Positions 3,446 to 59,263 of a stretch of DNA of 59,263 nucleotides are shown here, one piece after another; the stretch's first letter is position 1; each line of letters starts with the position of its first letter. This DNA is from Actinomycetes bacterium. Lineage in GTDB: Bacteria; Actinomycetota; Thermoleophilia; Solirubrobacterales; Solirubrobacteraceae. The notes beneath the pieces are model-generated. The model was given only the letters and a program-made list of their open reading frames with translations. It searched no databases and was not told where the DNA came from. Location: NCBI GenBank assembly GCA_021784895.1, contig JAJYHG010000029.1:1-59263 (forward strand). Direction: 5' to 3'. Both the position numbers and the translations under genes were made by a program.

Positions 3446-3852
3446 TGGCCTCGAGCGGCCTTGACATCGAGGTCCTCGGGATCGACCTGCTGGTGCCCGA
3501 CGCCCCGACCGCGCTGGAGGTCCGCGAGCTCTGCGCGCTGGCGCTCGCATCGGCCGGGATCGCAGAGGGTCACATGGCGGTGGAGTTCGTCGACGCGGCG
3601 CGCATCCGGGAGCTCAACCGCGCCCACCGGGCGATCGACGAGCCGACAGACGTGCTGTCCTTCGGCGTCGACGAGGATGGCGACAGCGCCGGGCCGCGTG
3701 AGCTCGGCGACATCATCATCTGCCCGCAGCACACCACTGACCTGCGCGAGGCCGTGGTCCACGGCACCCTGCACCTCACCGGCATGGACCATGAGGCCGA
3801 TGACGGGGAGATGCTTGTGCTGCAGTCCGAGCTGATGCGCTGGGTGCGATGA
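3445..3852 (+). CDS. ybeY: Endoribonuclease YbeY (16S rRNA 3'-end maturation)
   Basis: Metal-dependent single-strand endoribonuclease acting in 16S rRNA 3' maturation and ribosome quality control. Seen: the family signature HGTLHLTGMDH with the three metal ligands H106, H110 and H116, preceded by PTDVLSFG near residue 67 and LGDIIIC near 88. The 135-residue length is typical. It overlaps phoH by one base and era by four (ATGA), giving the conserved phoH-ybeY-era order; all three products act on ribosome assembly. Confidence 0.95.
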   Translation: MASSGLDIEVLGIDLLVPDAPTALEVRELCALALASAGIAEGHMAVEFVDAARIRELNRAHRAIDEPTDVLSFGVDEDGDSAGPRELGDIIICPQHTTDLREAVVHGTLHLTGMDHEADDGEMLVLQSELMRWVR

Positions 3853-51950: not shown

Positions 51951-52022
51951 TGCGGGATGGTGTAATTGGCAACACGCCAGGTTCTGGCCCTGGTATTCAA
52001 GGTTCGAGTCCTTGTCCCGCAG
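51951..52022 (+). tRNA. tRNA-Gln, anticodon CTG
   Basis: 72-base cloverleaf: acceptor TGCGGGA (51951-51957) pairs with TCCCGCA (52015-52021), D-loop with AATTGG, anticodon stem CCAGG/CCTGG with loop TTCTGGC (anticodon CTG), and T arm AAGGTTCGAGTCCTT. Discriminator G at 52022. CCA is not encoded. CTG reads CAG, the dominant Gln codon in GC-rich genomes. Confidence 0.95.
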
Positions 52023-52071
52023 CTTTGCAGCCGTAGCTCAAGGCCCGGACTAAGGCGTCGATAGTGGCGCT

Positions 52072-52296
52072 ATGTCTAATGAGCTGACGCCGGTGGTGAG
52101 TCCGTCGATGCCCTCGCGCCTGAAACGCGTCGGGCGACGGCTGGAGGAGTTCGCCTCGCAGGAGCGTGGCCAGGGGCTCGTGGAGTACGCCCTGGTGCTG
52201 GTGCTGGTTTCGATCGTCGCCATAGTGGCGCTGGATGTGATCGGTGGCAACGTGACCGACATCGTCAGCACCACTGCGCGGGCGGTGCATCCCTAG
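52072..52296 (+). CDS. Flp/Fap-type pilin
   Basis: 74 residues. A 33-residue leader precedes the prepilin peptidase site in ERG|QGLVEYA; E38 and Y39 are at positions +5/+6 of the mature pilin as required for Flp pilins. The mature hydrophobic helix is LVLVLVSIVAIVAL. No TadV/CpaA peptidase, ATPase or other tad genes are in the window. The leader is longer than in most Flp prepilins. It starts 50 bases after tRNA-Gln and could be cotranscribed. Confidence 0.85.
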   Translation: MSNELTPVVSPSMPSRLKRVGRRLEEFASQERGQGLVEYALVLVLVSIVAIVALDVIGGNVTDIVSTTARAVHP

Positions 52297-53125: not shown

Positions 53126-53163
53126 GGCGAGCCGGCCCGGACCGGCATCCGGGCCGGCTCGCC
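53126..53163. terminator. Perfect 16-bp GC hairpin between secreted protein and crotonase genes
   Basis: Arms 53126-53141 (GGCGAGCCGGCCCGGA) and 53148-53163 are perfect complements with a 6-base loop, just after the stop of the minus-strand small gene. No T-tract. Probable terminator. Confidence 0.6.
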
Positions 53164-53544: not shown

Positions 53545-54132
53545 TCAGATGAACAGGCTGATGGCGGAGCGTTGCATCCGCTCTAGGGCGGTTGCCGCGC
53601 CGGCTGGCTTATCCAGGCCGTCGATCAGGTCGGTGTCCTTGAGACCCATCATGTCCATCGTCATCCGGCATGGCCAGAGCTTGACGTCCAGGTCCTTTGC
53701 CATCTCGATCAGATCCTCGGGCGCGGCCACGCCGTTCTTGTCGGCGAGCTTGCGCATCATCATCGGTCCCATGCCGCCCATGTTCAGCTTTGACATGCCG
53801 GCGTGTTCGGCGCTGCCGCGGTTCATGAGCGAAAGGGCACGCGTCATCCAGTTGGTTCCGGTCAGGCGCCGCTCCTCGCGGACCAGCGGGAAGAGCCCCC
53901 AGAAGGTGAAGAACACCGCGACGTCCATGCCGCTCGCGGCGGCGGTGGTCGCGAGTATCGTCGTCGGCCAGATTCGGTCGAGGTCACCGCCCCAGGCGAT
54001 GAAGGTTGCCATGTTCGGGTCGCGCGTCTCGCTCTCGCGCGCCAGGATCAGTTCCTTTACGAAGGCGCTCAGATCGTCGGGAGTCATCTCCCCGATCGTC
54101 GCGGCCGGGCTGTTGATGGTTGCTGCCTCCAT
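53545..54132 (-). CDS. DsrE2-like DsrE/DsrF/DrsH family sulfur-trafficking protein
   Basis: 195 residues. Seen: MATFIAWGGDLDRIWPTTILATTAAASGMDVAVFFTFWGLFPLV (the DsrE2-type strand-helix unit with FFTFWGL), a Met/Gly-rich loop (NMGGMGPMMMRKL), and the probable active-site Cys in VKLWPCRMTMDMMGL. Cytoplasmic persulfide carrier of the DsrE superfamily, often found beside tusA in sulfur-oxidising bacteria. A strong AGAGGAGGGG precedes the ATG. It lies 33 bases downstream of arsR on the same strand, divergent from the tusA-hdr operon. Confidence 0.85.
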   Translation of the reverse strand: MEAATINSPAATIGEMTPDDLSAFVKELILARESETRDPNMATFIAWGGDLDRIWPTTILATTAAASGMDVAVFFTFWGLFPLVREERRLTGTNWMTRALSLMNRGSAEHAGMSKLNMGGMGPMMMRKLADKNGVAAPEDLIEMAKDLDVKLWPCRMTMDMMGLKDTDLIDGLDKPAGAATALERMQRSAISLFI

Positions 54133-54165: not shown

Positions 54166-54525
54166 CTATCGGTCCGGAAGTGAGGCCTCGAGCTCGGCTC
54201 CCCAATTGAGCCAATGGTCGTTCAGTGACTTGCAGACGACTCTGCACACCTCGTCCAGCGACGGATCGACGATCCGGTAGTAAGCGGTGGTTCCCTCGCG
54301 ACGGCGGGCGACCGTTTGATGCGCCCGTAACAGCGCCAACTGCTTGGAGACGGTCGCATAGGAGCTCTCGATCCGGGCAACGATCTCCCCGACGCTGAGC
54401 TCTCCGCTAGCGTGCAGTTCGCTGATGATGCGCAGCCTGGTCGGGTCACTTAGCAGCCGGAAGCGGTCGGCTACGCGCTCGACCAGCGCTGGCTGCAGGG
54501 CAGGAAGCAATTCGTCGTCGTGCAT
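54166..54525 (-). CDS. ArsR-family transcriptional repressor, candidate sHdr-locus regulator
   Basis: 119 residues, winged helix: ALVERVADRFRLLSDPTRLRIISELHASGELSVGEIVARIESSYATVSKQLALLRAHQTVARRREGTTAYYRIVDPSL. Two Cys, C94 and C98, lie in the C-terminal helix (DEVCRVVCKS); the Cys pair of SqrR/BigR-type sulfide sensors lies elsewhere, so the sensing mode may differ. ArsR proteins (sHdrR) repress sHdr operons in Hyphomicrobium. Position between dsrE2 and the tusA-hdr promoter, with a palindrome there, supports a similar role. Confidence 0.88.
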   Translation of the reverse strand: MHDDELLPALQPALVERVADRFRLLSDPTRLRIISELHASGELSVGEIVARIESSYATVSKQLALLRAHQTVARRREGTTAYYRIVDPSLDEVCRVVCKSLNDHWLNWGAELEASLPDR

Positions 54526-54534
54526 GGAGATAGG

Positions 54535-54540
54535 AGGTTA
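54535..54540 (-). promoter_or_regulatory. -10 hexamer TAACCT of arsR-dsrE2
   Basis: Minus-strand TAACCT lies 9 bases before the arsR ATG, with CTTGCG 17 bases further upstream as a weak -35. Confidence 0.45.
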
Positions 54541-54597
54541 GGGCATTTTCCAAGCTACGCAAGTAGTCGATCACTTCCGAGGGGCAGGCCTGGCCCC

Positions 54598-54621
54598 AAG
54601 TTTTCTTATTCAAGAAAACTT
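54598..54621. promoter_or_regulatory. Perfect 10-4-10 palindrome, candidate ArsR operator
   Basis: AAGTTTTCTT (54598-54607) and AAGAAAACTT (54612-54621) are exact reverse complements around ATTC. The right arm ends inside the TTGACA -35 of the tusA operon, so a bound repressor would exclude RNA polymerase. It is strikingly AT-rich in a GC-rich genome and about 75 bases from the arsR start. Confidence 0.75.
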
Positions 54622-54649
54622 GACAGGAACGGCAGCGCCGCTATATGCT
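54620..54649 (+). promoter_or_regulatory. Promoter of the tusA-dsrE-hdr operon (TTGACA / TATATG or TATGCT)
   Basis: A consensus -35 TTGACA (54620-54625) is followed after 16 bases by TATATG (54642-54647) or after 18 by TATGCT (54644-54649). It is the only consensus -35 I noticed in the window, suggesting a strong, repressed promoter with a normal leader and a Shine-Dalgarno. Confidence 0.7.
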
Positions 54650-54681
54650 CCGAGCACCAACCAATGAGGGAGGTTGTGAAC

Positions 54682-54924
54682 GTGTGCGCAGATTCTGCGA
54701 CGCCCACGCAGACGCTTGACGTCAAGGGTAAGGCGTGTCCAATTCCGGTCGTCAAGACCGCGAAACTGATGAAGGAGATGGGCTCCGGTGAGGTACTGGA
54801 GGTCTTGGCCACCGATCCCGGGGTCGAGCCCGACATGCACGCTTGGGCGCGGCAGACGGGTAACGAGCTGATCTCCATAGACAAGGACGGCGGTGCGTTC
54901 CGCGTCCTGCTTCGTAAGAGCTGA
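54682..54924 (+). CDS. tusA: Sulfur carrier protein TusA
   Basis: 80 residues. Small persulfide carrier: TLDVKGKACPIPVVKTAKLMKEMGSGEVLEVLATDPG, with the active Cys at residue 19 in the CPxP motif. GTG 54682 is chosen because GGGAGG lies 8 bases upstream; ATG 54664 and GTG 54676 are alternatives adding a few residues. In sHdr organisms TusA delivers sulfane sulfur in the cytoplasm; it is the first gene of the operon here. Confidence 0.93.
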   Translation: MCADSATPTQTLDVKGKACPIPVVKTAKLMKEMGSGEVLEVLATDPGVEPDMHAWARQTGNELISIDKDGGAFRVLLRKS

Positions 54925-54933
54925 GCTGGCGCG

Positions 54934-55308
54934 ATGAGTGACGAAACCTCCGTTATCTATGTGGTTACCCATGGAGTCGATTACCCCGAGCGCTGCGCGA
55001 CGCCCTTCTTCCTCGCCGCGGCTGCGGCCGCGATGGACGCGGAAGTCTCGATCTACTTCACGATGCGCGGGCCGGAACTGCTCAAGAAGGAGGTCGGCGA
55101 CCAGATCGGTCCCAAGGGCGAGCAGGGCGAGCGCCTCAGCTACTTCATCGAACAGGCGCTTGATTGCGGCGTGGAACTGCTCATCTGCCAGCCATCGCTG
55201 GATCTCAACGATCTCACGCTCGACGATCTGATCGAACCGGTGCGGATGATCGGCGGCGCAGCCTTCAACGACATGGCCATGCGGGCCGACGCGGTGATCA
55301 CCTTCTGA
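54934..55308 (+). CDS. dsrE: DsrE-family sulfur transferase
   Basis: 124 residues. Seen: VIYVVTHGVDYPERCATPFFLAAAAAAMDAEVSIYFTMRGPELL and the distal LDCGVELLICQPSLDL with C78 and C85, one of which should carry persulfide; a third Cys is C21. The single-subunit DsrE type associated with tusA and shdr genes. Its TGA overlaps the hdrC1 ATG (TGATG). Confidence 0.9.
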   Translation: MSDETSVIYVVTHGVDYPERCATPFFLAAAAAAMDAEVSIYFTMRGPELLKKEVGDQIGPKGEQGERLSYFIEQALDCGVELLICQPSLDLNDLTLDDLIEPVRMIGGAAFNDMAMRADAVITF

Positions 55309-56045
55309 TGCAGGCTTCAGCCCAGCTCACCCCGACGCATGCCGACTCAGCCGCCTACAAGCTCGGCATCACCTATCCCGACGTGCCTCTGGCGGAGAAG
55401 CAGCGCCTGTTCGACGAAGTCAAGGCGGATGAGCGCTTTCACGACTACCTCTACGGGTGCTACGAGTGTGGAATCTGCGTTGCCGCCTGTCCGTCGGCGC
55501 GCTACTACGACTTCTCTCCCCGCCGGATCGCGCAAGCCGCCGCCCGCGAGGACATCGAGCTCATCTACCAGCAGATGCAGGAAGACATCTGGGACTGCTC
55601 GCAGTGCTTTTCCTGTCTGCGCTGCCCGCGGGGTAACAACCCTGGAGGGATCATCACTGTTATGCGCGAGGTCGCGGTCAACAACGGTCTCGAGTCCGCC
55701 AAGCAGGCACTTCGTGGGTATACGCGCATCATCTACAAGATCATGTCCACCGGTACTCAGGTATCGCCGGACATGCTTCAGGCCGACGCGTTCCCGGACT
55801 GGGGGCCGAGCGTAGCTCGTGTCTCCGAAAAGCTTGATCTGTGGCGGCGCGCGCTGCCCCCGGAGACTCACCACACCACCACCACTGGGTGGCAGATTTC
55901 CACCAAGACGCTGGTCGAGCTGTACCTCATATGGCACAAGACCGGAGCACTGAACATGATCTCCGAGCTCGACGCGAGCCTGCACAGCCTGCTGGAGGAG
56001 GTCATGGAAGACCTGCTGGACGAACAGGGTTACGAGCTGGATTAG
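55308..56045 (+). CDS. hdrC1: sHdr subunit HdrC1-like, two 4Fe-4S clusters
   Basis: 245 residues. Ferredoxin-type cysteines C51/C54/C57/C61 (CYECGICVAACP) and C97/C100/C103/C106 (CSQCFSCLRCP) bind two cubanes. The C-terminal 130 residues are helical (GYTRIIYKIMSTGT, STKTLVELYLIWHKTGA). Resembles HdrC of methanogen heterodisulfide reductase and the C1 subunit of sHdr complexes. ATG 55308 is coupled to dsrE; the longer frame upstream is a shadow of it. Electron transfer within a cytoplasmic complex oxidising bound sulfane sulfur is inferred from the operon. Confidence 0.9.
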   Translation: MQASAQLTPTHADSAAYKLGITYPDVPLAEKQRLFDEVKADERFHDYLYGCYECGICVAACPSARYYDFSPRRIAQAAAREDIELIYQQMQEDIWDCSQCFSCLRCPRGNNPGGIITVMREVAVNNGLESAKQALRGYTRIIYKIMSTGTQVSPDMLQADAFPDWGPSVARVSEKLDLWRRALPPETHHTTTTGWQISTKTLVELYLIWHKTGALNMISELDASLHSLLEEVMEDLLDEQGYELD

Positions 56046-56062: not shown

Positions 56063-57265
56063 ATGACGATTCCCGTAGAGAAGGTTGCCGGGCCACGCCG
56101 GAAGAACAAAGCTGATTTCCAATGGAGTGAGGAGCACGCGCCGGAGGACTTCCACGAGCGACTGTTCGAGCTCGAGGAGAAGGGCGAGCTGGTGGTCCAG
56201 CGCGTCGACACCGAGCACATCGAGGTACCGGTCAAGTATGGACGCACCAAGAAGGTGCCGATCGGCCACACCTGGCACCACAAGAGCTGCGGGCAGTGCG
56301 GCCATATACCTGGCTACTCGACGTCGATCTTCTGGGTCAACCGCAAGCTCGGCATAGAGTATGAGGATCCGAGTGACCAGACCTCGTGTACGGCATGGAA
56401 CTACTATGCGTCAGCAACGTCGAACGCTGCTGCCCAGGCTGCCGTGGCGGTCCGTAACTTCGCCACCGCCTACGAGACCGGCCGCTTCCCGATCATCCAC
56501 TGCGGGACCTCTTTCGGGCACTACAAGGAGGTACGCCACGAGCTGCTCGCGCACGACCACCTGAGGGAGGAGGTCCGTCGTGTCATGGACGCCCTGGGTA
56601 AGCCGCTGGTGCTCCCTGAGGAGATGGTCCACTACTCCGAGTGGTTCTACGCCATGCGGCACGAGATCGCCAAGCACCAGGTGCGCGACTTCTCGAACAT
56701 CGCTGTCACCGTCCACCCGGCTTGTCACTACTACAAGCTCGTGGAGGGTGACGCGATTTATGATCCTGAGGTCTACGGCGGCCAGCGGACTGCGATCGTG
56801 TCAGAGGTCGCCCAGGCACTCGGTGCCGAGGTACGTGACTATTCGACCTGGTTTGACTGCTGCGGGTTTGGCTTCCGCCACATCCTGGTGAGCCGTGATT
56901 TCACCAGATCTTTCGTAACCCAGCGCAAGATCAAGCGCATGAAGGAGGAGGCCGACCCCGACGTCACGCTCACGCACGACACGGGCTGCGTGACGGCGCT
57001 CGATAAGAGCCAGTTCGCCGCCAAGGCGCAGGATCCGGACTTCGCGACCATTCCGGTGATGTCGGAGGCGCAGTTCGCGGCGCTCGCGATGGGCGCGCAC
57101 CCATATCTCGTCTGTCAGCTGCACTGGCACGCCGCCGACTACAAGCCGCTGCTGGAAAAGATGGGCATCGACCACGAAAAGGCGTGGGCCGAGTTTGAGG
57201 AGGCGACCGCGCGCCTGGAGCGCGGCGAGCAAAAGTACTTGACGTGGGAGGACGCGGATGTCTGA
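56063..57265 (+). CDS. hdrB1: sHdr subunit HdrB1-like (CCG-domain protein)
   Basis: 400 residues from ATG 56063, which has AGAGGAG upstream. The C-terminal CCG domain is intact: C221 (HPACHYYK), C266-C267 (FDCCGFGF), C309 (DTGCVTALD) and C351 (YLVCQLHW). The N-terminal half has C76/C79 (SCGQCG), C109 and C147, a degenerate CCG arrangement lacking the Cys-Cys pair. So at least one non-cubane-type cluster, where substrate disulfide/persulfide chemistry occurs in HdrB, is likely. An N-terminal extension of about 70 residues is charged. It overlaps hdrA by 8 bases. Confidence 0.9.
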   Translation: MTIPVEKVAGPRRKNKADFQWSEEHAPEDFHERLFELEEKGELVVQRVDTEHIEVPVKYGRTKKVPIGHTWHHKSCGQCGHIPGYSTSIFWVNRKLGIEYEDPSDQTSCTAWNYYASATSNAAAQAAVAVRNFATAYETGRFPIIHCGTSFGHYKEVRHELLAHDHLREEVRRVMDALGKPLVLPEEMVHYSEWFYAMRHEIAKHQVRDFSNIAVTVHPACHYYKLVEGDAIYDPEVYGGQRTAIVSEVAQALGAEVRDYSTWFDCCGFGFRHILVSRDFTRSFVTQRKIKRMKEEADPDVTLTHDTGCVTALDKSQFAAKAQDPDFATIPVMSEAQFAALAMGAHPYLVCQLHWHAADYKPLLEKMGIDHEKAWAEFEEATARLERGEQKYLTWEDADV

Positions 57266-58307
57266 CAGGGTCGTGGTGATCGGCGGCGGGCCAGGCGGCA
57301 TCGAGGCAGCCCGGCAGGTCGCCGACCTCGGATATCCGGCGCTGCTGGTCGAGCAGCGGGAGCGGCTTGGCGGAACCCCGATCTTCGCCAACTACGCCGC
57401 GCTGACGCCGTACTTCGCCAACGCCGAGGAGGCGATGGACGGGATGATCGCCGAGCTCGCGCAGCGCCAGCGTGCGGAGGTCCGCACCTCCGCGACGGTC
57501 ACGGGGCTGAGCGGGGAAGCCGGGGCGTTCACGGTGGAGCTCTCAACTGGTGAGAAGCTCGACGCTGGAGCGGTGATCGTCGCCACCGGCTTTGACCACT
57601 TCGACCCGGGCCGCGAGCGCCAGATCTACAACTACTACCAGTACCCGGACGTGCTCGCGCTCCAGGACCTGGAGGCGCAGCTCAAGGAGCACAAGGTCAC
57701 AGTGCCCTCCACGGGCAGGGCACCCGAGAGCATCTGCTGGGTGCAGTGCGTCGGGTCTCGTGACCGCAACATCGGTAATGAGTGGTGCTCCAAGGTCTGT
57801 TGCGGAATCGCGTCCAAGCAGGCGATCGAAGTGCGCAAGCTCTCACCCCAGACACGGGCCTACATCTTCTACATCGACATGCGGATGTACGGCTACTGGG
57901 AGACACAGCTCTACTGGCCCGCCCAGGAGCAGCATCACGTCCAGTACATCAAGGGCATCATCACCGAGGTGCTCGAGCGCGGCGACCGTCTGGTCGTACG
58001 CGGCGAGGACACGACCATGGGCCGCCCGCTCGAGGTGCCGATGGACATGGTCGTCCTCTCGGTGGGGATGGAGCCGTCCGCTGGCACCAAGGCCATGAGT
58101 GACGTCCTCGGCATCGAGCGCAACCGCCATGGCTTCATCGAAGTCATGAACCCACCGCTCGATACGGTGACCACCAGCCGCGCCGGCGTGTTTGCCTGTG
58201 GCGCGGCGCTGGGCCCGGCCGATCTGGAGGACACGATCTCCTCGGCCGGCGCCGCCGCCGGCAAGGCGGTCGCACTGGTGCGGCGAGACAGCCTCGCGGT
58301 CGCCTGA
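57258..58307 (+). CDS. hdrA: sHdr subunit HdrA-like, FAD and 4Fe-4S
   Basis: 349 residues. FAD/NAD Rossmann motif VVVIGGGPGGIEAARQVADLG at the N terminus and AVIVATGFDHFDP. The HdrA cluster region has C160, C164, C177, C181 and C182 (WVQCVGSRD...WCSKVCC). TRAYIFYIDMRMYGYWE follows, then a final GVFACGAALGPADLEDTISSAGAAAGKAV at the flavin. The short form without the ferredoxin and thioredoxin-reductase additions of methanogen HdrA is typical of sHdrA. The bifurcating function is therefore unlikely; electrons probably go to NAD+ or quinone via partners. Confidence 0.92.
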   Translation: MSDRVVVIGGGPGGIEAARQVADLGYPALLVEQRERLGGTPIFANYAALTPYFANAEEAMDGMIAELAQRQRAEVRTSATVTGLSGEAGAFTVELSTGEKLDAGAVIVATGFDHFDPGRERQIYNYYQYPDVLALQDLEAQLKEHKVTVPSTGRAPESICWVQCVGSRDRNIGNEWCSKVCCGIASKQAIEVRKLSPQTRAYIFYIDMRMYGYWETQLYWPAQEQHHVQYIKGIITEVLERGDRLVVRGEDTTMGRPLEVPMDMVVLSVGMEPSAGTKAMSDVLGIERNRHGFIEVMNPPLDTVTTSRAGVFACGAALGPADLEDTISSAGAAAGKAVALVRRDSLAVA

Positions 58308-58308
58308 C

Positions 58309-59076
58309 ATGGTCGGCGGCGCGGGCCCGGCCGCGGTGGGGGATGTCCCCGAGGTTGACATCCCAACGGCCAAGGAGCTGATCGAGCAGATCCATGAGCA
58401 CATAAGCGTTACCGAGCTTGGCGAGCTTGTCGCCGAGCTCGAGACCAAGGCCGGCGTGATGCAGACACTCATCGCTCGCGGAGAGCTTGACGCGGCGGGG
58501 CTCCGACGCGCGCTCGAGCTGACATTCGTGGGGCGCCGCCGGGCAAGCGCTGTGCTCGGGATCCGCTCCGACACGGAGCTTGCCAGCTGGGCCGGGGGTC
58601 TGTTTGACCCCGGCGTGCCGCTGGCAACCCGCTTCGATCGCTTCTGCGCGGCCGCCGGCCCGCTGGCCGGCGGCCAGGCGGCGGAGCTGGCGTCCGAGCT
58701 GCTCCACTTCACCGTGCCCGAGCGCTACTGGCTCTGGTCGCGCTGGATGTGGAGCAACGAGAGTCGCACGGGTGCTCTGCCGCTGCTGATCGGCGAGGAG
58801 TTCGAGCTCGAAGGTGACTCACTCGGCACGACCTACGAACGCGTCGGCCGCGCGTTTGCGGCGCTCGACGCCTCGCCGGAGGCATCGGCCTTCCGTCTCG
58901 GTGGTGGCGGCCGGCTCGCCACCGATGTGCTGCTCGCTTGCACCTACGCCGTGTACATGCGCACGGTGCTAGGCCTGAAGATGACCCAGGAGTTCAACGC
59001 GCTCGTGCCGGCTATGCCCCAGCTTGTGCGCCGGCTGCTTGGGATCCACGTTAAACCGCTCCAGGAGGTGTCTTAG
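58309..59076 (+). CDS. Conserved hypothetical protein of sHdr operons (Hyp)
   Basis: 255 residues, one base after hdrA. Largely helical; no cysteine cluster, one Cys near FDRFCAAAGPLAGG and one near LLACTYAVYM. The sequences PTAKELIEQIHEHISVTELGELVAEL and ERYWLWSRWMWSNES are distinctive, but I know no biochemical function. In sHdr loci of sulfur oxidisers a hypothetical gene occupies exactly this place between hdrA and hdrC2. Trp/Tyr-rich central part suggests a protein-protein surface. Probably a structural or assembly component of the complex. Confidence 0.8.
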   Translation: MVGGAGPAAVGDVPEVDIPTAKELIEQIHEHISVTELGELVAELETKAGVMQTLIARGELDAAGLRRALELTFVGRRRASAVLGIRSDTELASWAGGLFDPGVPLATRFDRFCAAAGPLAGGQAAELASELLHFTVPERYWLWSRWMWSNESRTGALPLLIGEEFELEGDSLGTTYERVGRAFAALDASPEASAFRLGGGGRLATDVLLACTYAVYMRTVLGLKMTQEFNALVPAMPQLVRRLLGIHVKPLQEVS

Positions 59077-59079
59077 CCC

Positions 59080-59263
59080 ATGCCCGTCGGAGGTCAAAAG
59101 CAGCTGCCGATCGTCAAGGAACTCGCTTCGGCGGTAGTGGACGGGGTGGAGCTCACCGCCGACTGGAACCGTCAGTTCGAGATGCGGGTGATCGAGGAGT
59201 ATGAGTCCTCGCCGCTGTTCGAGCTCGCCGCGCTCAGCGAGGCTGAGTCGATTGAGTGGTGTT
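59080..59263 (+). CDS. Start of hdrC2-like gene, 3' truncated by window edge
   Basis: 61 codons from ATG 59080, preceded by CAGGAGG at good spacing. It reads MPVGGQKQLPIVKELAS and ends EAESIEWC at the window boundary; this Cys could begin a ferredoxin-type cluster. From the conserved order hdrC1-B1-A-hyp-C2-B2 it should be hdrC2, but the visible part carries no diagnostic motif, so this is positional inference. Confidence 0.6.
   Translation, partial: MPVGGQKQLPIVKELASAVVDGVELTADWNRQFEMRVIEEYESSPLFELAALSEAESIEWC

What the first reader, a model, noticed from the sequence alone, without database searches (positions are those of the whole stretch)
54598..54649. Perfect 10-4-10 palindrome on the -35 of the tusA-hdr promoter
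An exact AT-rich 24-bp palindrome shares its last two bases with the TTGACA -35 box, between divergent arsR and tusA. This is how ArsR repressors of sulfur operons (sHdrR, SqrR, BigR) are expected to act. The promoter is the only consensus sigma-70-like -35 I noticed in the window, so the operon looks strongly expressed once derepressed.
Basis: partly seen in the sequence, partly recalled or inferred. Interest (0 to 1): 0.7.

Follow-up and report, generated by a model that had tools for sequence, protein, structure and literature searches.

The report
Likely repressor site before sulfur-oxidation operon
A short symmetrical DNA sequence overlaps the promoter of a sulfur-oxidation operon and is probably where the neighbouring ArsR-type repressor sits to keep the genes off; such switches are known, but this repressor lacks the usual sulfur-sensing cysteines and carries a different conserved pair.

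Summary
The palindrome is real and slightly longer than reported: CAAGTTTTCTT-ATTC-AAGAAAACTTG (11-4-11), 54597-54622. It overlaps TTGACA (54620-54625), which has a plausible -10 (TATGCT, 54644-54649). No AT-rich perfect dyad of this size arose in 100 dinucleotide shuffles, and it is unique in the 2.8-Mb genome. All six Solirubrobacterales genomes with this tusA-dsrE-shdr cluster (of 232 searched) also carry the divergent ArsR. Five of the six keep a recognisable site at near-fixed spacing: AGTTTTCnTATT-n5-AAnnTTGACA in four, AATTTTC-N8-GAAAATT in a fifth. Three more distant actinobacterial shdr clusters lack both ArsR and site. The perfect symmetry is specific to this genome; relatives match at only 5-7 of 11 positions. 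Best explanation: an operator through which the ArsR blocks the tusA-shdr promoter. The spacing TTTC-N8-GAAA resembles the SqrR/YgaV site ATTC-N8-GAAT. However, this ArsR is not a BigR/SqrR/sHdrR-type sensor by cysteines: both are replaced. Its only cysteines, C94 and C98 (CX3C, alpha-5), are invariant in all 15 family loci of the order, some beside metallo-beta-lactamase/rhodanese genes. Binding, repression and ligand are untested. An UP element is the main rival.

The parts
54597..54622 (.). 11-4-11 perfect palindrome CAAGTTTTCTT-ATTC-AAGAAAACTTG, predicted ArsR operator (about -59 to -34 from the predicted start)
   Evidence: 0 of 100 shuffles; single copy in genome
54599..54610 (+). AGTTTTCnTATT: the part of the site, outside the -35, that is invariant (11 of 12) in the four closest genomes
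54602..54617 (.). TTTC-N8-GAAA core, same geometry as the SqrR/YgaV motif ATTC-N8-GAAT
   Evidence: motif from PMC9774250
54620..54625 (+). -35 box TTGACA of the tusA-shdr promoter
   Evidence: conserved in 5 of 6 genomes
54644..54649 (+). -10 box TATGCT (alternative TATATG 54642-54647); predicted start about 54656
   Evidence: TATGCT conserved in the 4 closest genomes
54682..54924 (+). tusA (GTG start, aligned with ATG in relatives; GAGGGAGG ribosome site just upstream)
   Evidence: Pfam TusA 2.9e-23; single copy in genome; start inferred from the alignment
54934..55308 (+). dsrE of the shdr cluster
   Evidence: Pfam DsrE 6.7e-15
55308..56045 (+). shdrC1
   Evidence: HdrC 7.9e-23
56069..57265 (+). 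shdrB1
   Evidence: HdrB 3.3e-38
57258..58307 (+). shdrA
   Evidence: HdrA2 9.7e-68
58309..59076 (+). hypothetical subunit (shdrH position)
   Evidence: no family match; same position in relatives
59080..59263 (+). start of shdrB3 (type II), cut by the end of the contig
   Evidence: sequence; full gene in L055 6236-7531
54166..54525 (-). arsR, predicted repressor; only cysteines C94 and C98
   Evidence: NF033788 80.7 bits, cut-off 55
54535..54562 (-). predicted arsR promoter TTGCGT-N16-TAACCT, 9 nt from the ATG (near-leaderless), with conserved flanks
   Evidence: sequence and alignment of 4 genomes
53545..54132 (-). dsrE2 downstream of arsR, probably co-transcribed with it
   Evidence: Pfam DrsE_2 1.7e-41

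Best explanation
The palindrome is the operator of the divergently encoded ArsR-family dimer. Bound there, the ArsR covers the region from about -59 to -34 of the tusA promoter and keeps sigma region 4 and RNA polymerase off the consensus -35, so the tusA-dsrE-shdr (type II sHdr-LbpA) operon stays off. A sulfur signal, most likely sulfane sulfur carried on thiols, acts on the alpha-5 pair C94/C98 and releases the repressor. The arsR-dsrE2 promoter lies about 35-70 bp away and should be less affected, so ArsR would be made continuously. Shown here: the DNA dyad, its position, its conservation with the ArsR gene, and the cysteines. Inferred: binding, repression, and the ligand.
For: Dyad beyond chance. 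Lies on the only TTGACA in the window that has a good -10. Conserved block AGTTTTCnTATT-n5-AAnnTTGACA stands out in an intergenic region that is otherwise largely unalignable between the arsR and tusA promoters. In 232 genomes of the order the site pattern (up to 1 mismatch) occurs 4 times, each time at this promoter, with 0 in the reversed control. In the five sister shdr genomes searched with up to 2 mismatches it occurs only there, including the symmetric variant AATTTTC-N8-GAAAATT in G134. Symmetric changes in both half-sites across six genomes: covariation score reached in 5 of 500 shuffles and higher than all slid controls. All 6 genomes of the order with this DsrE carry the divergent ArsR. 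Three actinobacterial shdr clusters without the ArsR lack the site. Geometry TTTC-N8-GAAA compared with ATTC-N8-GAAT of SqrR, found under the YgaV footprint on its own promoter (PMC9774250). ArsR repressors of sox/shdr genes are established in Hyphomicrobium (PMC12423496, PMC10451225).
Against: Only the window has a perfect dyad; relatives have 5-7 of 11 strict pairs, and on a per-genome basis most are not exceptional. The right half overlaps the -35, so its conservation is confounded with promoter function. Six genomes, two of them close, is a small sample. G169 keeps the ArsR but its site is poorly recognisable. No binding or transcript data.
Confidence: 0.68

Rival explanations
1. The AT-rich element is an UP element that raises promoter strength by binding the C-terminal domains of the RNA polymerase alpha subunit; the dyad is incidental.
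For: It sits at -59 to -38, and in the whole + strand of the window the best match to the UP consensus (consensus recalled, not looked up) is here, 10 of 15. The conserved AGTTTTCnTATT falls on the distal subsite. In G134, where the -35 is weak, the AT element is also present.
Against: Relatives score only 6 of 15 (9 in G134) and are just 59-68% AT, yet keep specific G and C positions (AGTTTTC). The matched half-site changes in G134 are not expected of an UP element.
Confidence: 0.15
2. The ArsR-family protein binds the site but activates tusA-shdr transcription, from a class II-like position beside sigma.
For: The centre near -46 is close to activator positions, and some ArsR-family proteins are described as activators (PDB entries for HlyU are named so).
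Against: The -35 is full consensus in 5 of 6 genomes, which does not call for an activator. Characterised sulfur-responsive relatives SoxR and sHdrR repress (PMC12423496, PMC10451225).
Confidence: 0.07
3. Another transcription factor, not the neighbouring ArsR, uses the site.
For: No binding data; shdr genes in Hyphomicrobium are controlled by two regulators (PMC12423496).
Against: Site and ArsR are present together in 5 of 6 shdr genomes of the order and absent together in three other actinobacterial clusters.
Confidence: 0.08
4. The inverted repeat acts as an RNA hairpin or terminator in a transcript.
For: Folds at -10.1 kcal/mol as RNA, z -6.1. A terminator-like stem lies next to it at 54581-54597.
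Against: It lies upstream of both predicted start sites, so neither transcript would contain it. The stem is A-U rich, and relatives lose the pairing while keeping the sequence. The adjacent G+C stem is not conserved.
Confidence: 0.02

Closest known systems
SqrR (Rhodobacter capsulatus) / YgaV (E. coli) operators
   Same: Inverted repeat with C-N8-G spacing (ATTC-N8-GAAT against TTTC-N8-GAAA), over promoter elements, bound by an ArsR-family repressor of sulfur-responsive genes
   Different: Outer base of each half-site differs; the repressor here lacks both SqrR sensor cysteines (Cys41 to Ser35, Cys107 to about Asn102)
sHdrR and SoxR of Hyphomicrobium denitrificans
   Same: ArsR-type regulator encoded beside an shdr cluster; predicted to repress it
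   Different: Lacks the Cys50/Cys116 pair; type II cluster in an actinobacterium; a single local site rather than several shared ones
SmtB / CzrA metalloregulators
   Same: Best sequence match among solved structures (SmtB, 1.3e-16 with a profile)
   Different: Gene context is sulfur oxidation, not metal efflux; carries an alpha-5 CX3C pair. The SmtB metal ligands were not examined position by position.

Membership tests
BigR/SqrR/sHdrR persulfide-sensing ArsR repressors | ArsR-type winged-helix domain | tested here: met
   PF01022 30 bits (cut-off 22), NF033788 80.7 bits (cut-off 55)
BigR/SqrR/sHdrR persulfide-sensing ArsR repressors | Two conserved cysteines (Cys50 and Cys116 of sHdrR; Cys41 and Cys107 of SqrR) | tested here: not met
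   Alignment with SqrR structure sequences puts Ser35 at the first; the second is about Asn102 by four-residue ungapped extension. Only C94 and C98 are present
BigR/SqrR/sHdrR persulfide-sensing ArsR repressors | Passes the BigR equivalog model NF040642 | tested here: not met
   42.7 bits against a cut-off of 155
BigR/SqrR/sHdrR persulfide-sensing ArsR repressors | Operator ATTC-N8-GAAT over the promoter | tested here: inconclusive
   TTTC-N8-GAAA: same spacing, 3 of 4 bases per half-site; right half degenerate in three close relatives
BigR/SqrR/sHdrR persulfide-sensing ArsR repressors | Loss of DNA binding with sulfane sulfur | not testable with these tools
   needs purified protein
Type II sHdr-LbpA gene cluster | shdrC1B1AHB3 and etfAB in one cluster (definition in PMC11582611) | tested here: met
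   Met in the sister genomes G133, G134, G169; in the window the contig ends inside shdrB3
UP element | AT-rich match to the alpha-CTD consensus at -59 to -38 | tested here: inconclusive
   10 of 15 in the window, 6-9 of 15 in relatives

The most novel reading that the evidence does not exclude
An ArsR subfamily of Solirubrobacterales senses sulfane sulfur through an intra-helical alpha-5 CX3C pair instead of the BigR/SqrR cysteine pair, and through this operator controls a type II sHdr operon. It would be one of the 'different modes of action' that PMC12423496 says may exist for shdr-linked ArsRs lacking the two cysteines.
Probability: 0.4. Interest if true: 0.55.

Novelty: new variant of a known kind. 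Interest (0 to 1): 0.4.

Why it matters
Regulation of type II sHdr sulfur oxidation is hardly known, and published work notes that many shdr-linked ArsR proteins lack the known sensor cysteines. Here a defined operator, a defined regulator and a conserved alternative cysteine pair make the question directly testable with one gel shift and two point changes.

Tried and rejected
Genome-wide regulon: no second site. With 3 mismatches the counts are no higher than the reversed control (7 and 9 against 9 and 13), and one-mismatch TTTTC-N8-GAAAA sites are near control. Structure prediction of ArsR from three sequences gave low confidence (mean pLDDT 57); only the helix 90-115 holding C94/C98 was used, and no fold search was made. 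DsrE hits in another family of the class are distant and carry no matching TusA or Hdr genes in the flanks searched. RNA hairpin and terminator readings rejected. No paper was found that describes an alpha-5 CX3C persulfide-linked ArsR, but the library is partial. A possible second operator at the arsR -35 (conserved AAACTGTGCAAGTAG) could not be separated from conservation of the -35 itself. Laying the whole genome in the Python box was not available, so genome scans used the pattern tool.

Full report
Observation. The reported 10-4-10 palindrome at 54598-54621 exists and extends by one pair to 11-4-11, CAAGTTTTCTT-ATTC-AAGAAAACTTG, 54597-54622. It runs three bases into TTGACA (54620-54625). 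That hexamer is followed by TATGCT at 54644-54649 (spacer 18) or TATATG at 54642-54647 (spacer 16), each 10/12. TTGACA occurs 12 times in the window, but only this copy has a -10 of that quality. Among 100 dinucleotide shuffles none gave an AT-rich perfect palindrome with arms of 11 or more; the window's longer palindromes are G+C-rich. The AT-richest 26-mer of the window starts at 54598. The whole 2.81-Mb genome has one copy, and looser searches give counts equal to or near the controls.

Setting. ArsR (54166-54525, minus) is followed by dsrE2 (53545-54132, minus). On the other side run tusA (54682-54924), dsrE, shdrC1, shdrB1, shdrA, a hypothetical subunit and the start of shdrB3, where the contig ends. 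The complete cluster in the nearest named genome, Conexibacter sp. S30A1 (G133), continues with shdrB3 (fused C2-B2), lipoate ligase, LbpA, two radical SAM proteins, a second ligase and etfBA. By the definition in PMC11582611 this is a type II sHdr-LbpA cluster. The arsR promoter is probably TTGCGT-N16-TAACCT, 54562-54535 on the minus strand, leaving at most a few untranslated bases.

Phylogenetic footprint. Only 6 of 232 genomes of the order carry this DsrE, and all six have the same ArsR divergent to tusA. In the four closest, the stretch between the two promoters cannot be aligned except for AGTTTTCnTATT-n5-AAnnTTGACA. The pattern TTTTCNTATTNNNNNAANNTTGACA, allowing one mismatch, occurs four times in the 232 genomes, each time at this promoter, with none in the reversed control. 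A search of five sister genomes with two mismatches adds AATTTTCCTCTTTGAGAAAATTT at the same place in G134, where G:C has become A:T in both half-sites and the -35 is not TTGACA. G169 keeps TTGACA but only a weak form of the site. Three actinobacterial type II clusters outside the order (G455, G478, G529; G478 is seen only in part) lack both the ArsR and the site.

Symmetry. The perfect dyad belongs to this genome alone. Counting strict pairs, relatives have 5-7 of 11, mostly not individually remarkable. Taken together, the six sites show more matched changes than shuffled or slid versions: covariation score 0.261 against a mean of 0.178, 5 of 500 shuffles, all slides lower. That count treats G-T as a pair, which is generous for a DNA site. 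I read the symmetry as real but asymmetrically constrained, because the right half must also serve as promoter.

The regulator. The protein is an ArsR/SmtB-type winged helix, closest among solved structures to SmtB and then SqrR. The residues aligned with the SqrR/sHdrR sensor cysteines are Ser35 and, by a short ungapped extension, Asn102. The BigR equivalog score is 42.7 against a cut-off of 155. Its only cysteines, C94 and C98, are invariant in all 15 family loci of the order. Four of those loci (L012, L013, L015, L016) lie next to a rhodanese gene, fused to a metallo-beta-lactamase domain in the two fully covered cases and beginning with a similar sequence in the others. This is the persulfide dioxygenase plus rhodanese type of arrangement, which suggests but does not show a sulfane-sulfur signal. 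PMC12423496 states that many shdr-linked ArsR proteins lack the two cysteines and may work differently.

Mechanism. The predicted start near 54656 puts the dyad at about -59 to -34. An ArsR dimer there would block sigma region 4 and the alpha subunits. The geometry TTTC-N8-GAAA parallels ATTC-N8-GAAT, reported for SqrR and seen under the YgaV footprint on its own promoter (PMC9774250). The main rival is an UP element: the best UP match in the window's + strand is here (10 of 15), but relatives fall to 6-9 of 15 while keeping specific G and C positions. Activation, another regulator, or an RNA hairpin are less likely.

Verdict. The operator reading is well supported by comparison but untested. 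Filing the regulator under sHdrR/SqrR/BigR is not supported for the sensing cysteines. The finding is a new variant of a known arrangement; its real interest is the alternative cysteine pair.

Noticed in passing
54540-54570: Conserved block around the arsR -35 (AAACTGTGCAAGTAGTCGA in relatives), which might hold a second operator half-site or simply be the arsR promoter.
   Followed up: partly
54581-54597: Near-palindrome GGGGCAGGCCTGGCCCC abutting the AT-rich dyad; terminator-like, not conserved in relatives.
   Followed up: partly
L012, L013, L015, L016: ArsR relatives with the same CX3C pair sit beside rhodanese genes (metallo-beta-lactamase plus rhodanese where complete).
   Followed up: partly
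L060 about 3470-3500: An shdr cluster without this ArsR has a different palindrome, CATATGCGCAGGTGCGCATATG, upstream of tusA, hinting at another regulator.
   Followed up: no
L014, L018, L019 just upstream of arsR: Related ArsR genes are preceded by GTTAA-N4-TTAAC type repeats within ACTTGTTAAGTTGT(T/G)AACTTGT.
   Followed up: no
2333-2372 and 53126-53163: Very long perfect G+C-rich inverted repeats (19-bp and 16-bp stems), far above shuffled expectation.
   Followed up: no
51951-52296: tRNA-Gln(CTG) at 51951-52023, followed by a small ORF (52072-52296) that looks like a Flp-type pilin.
   Followed up: no
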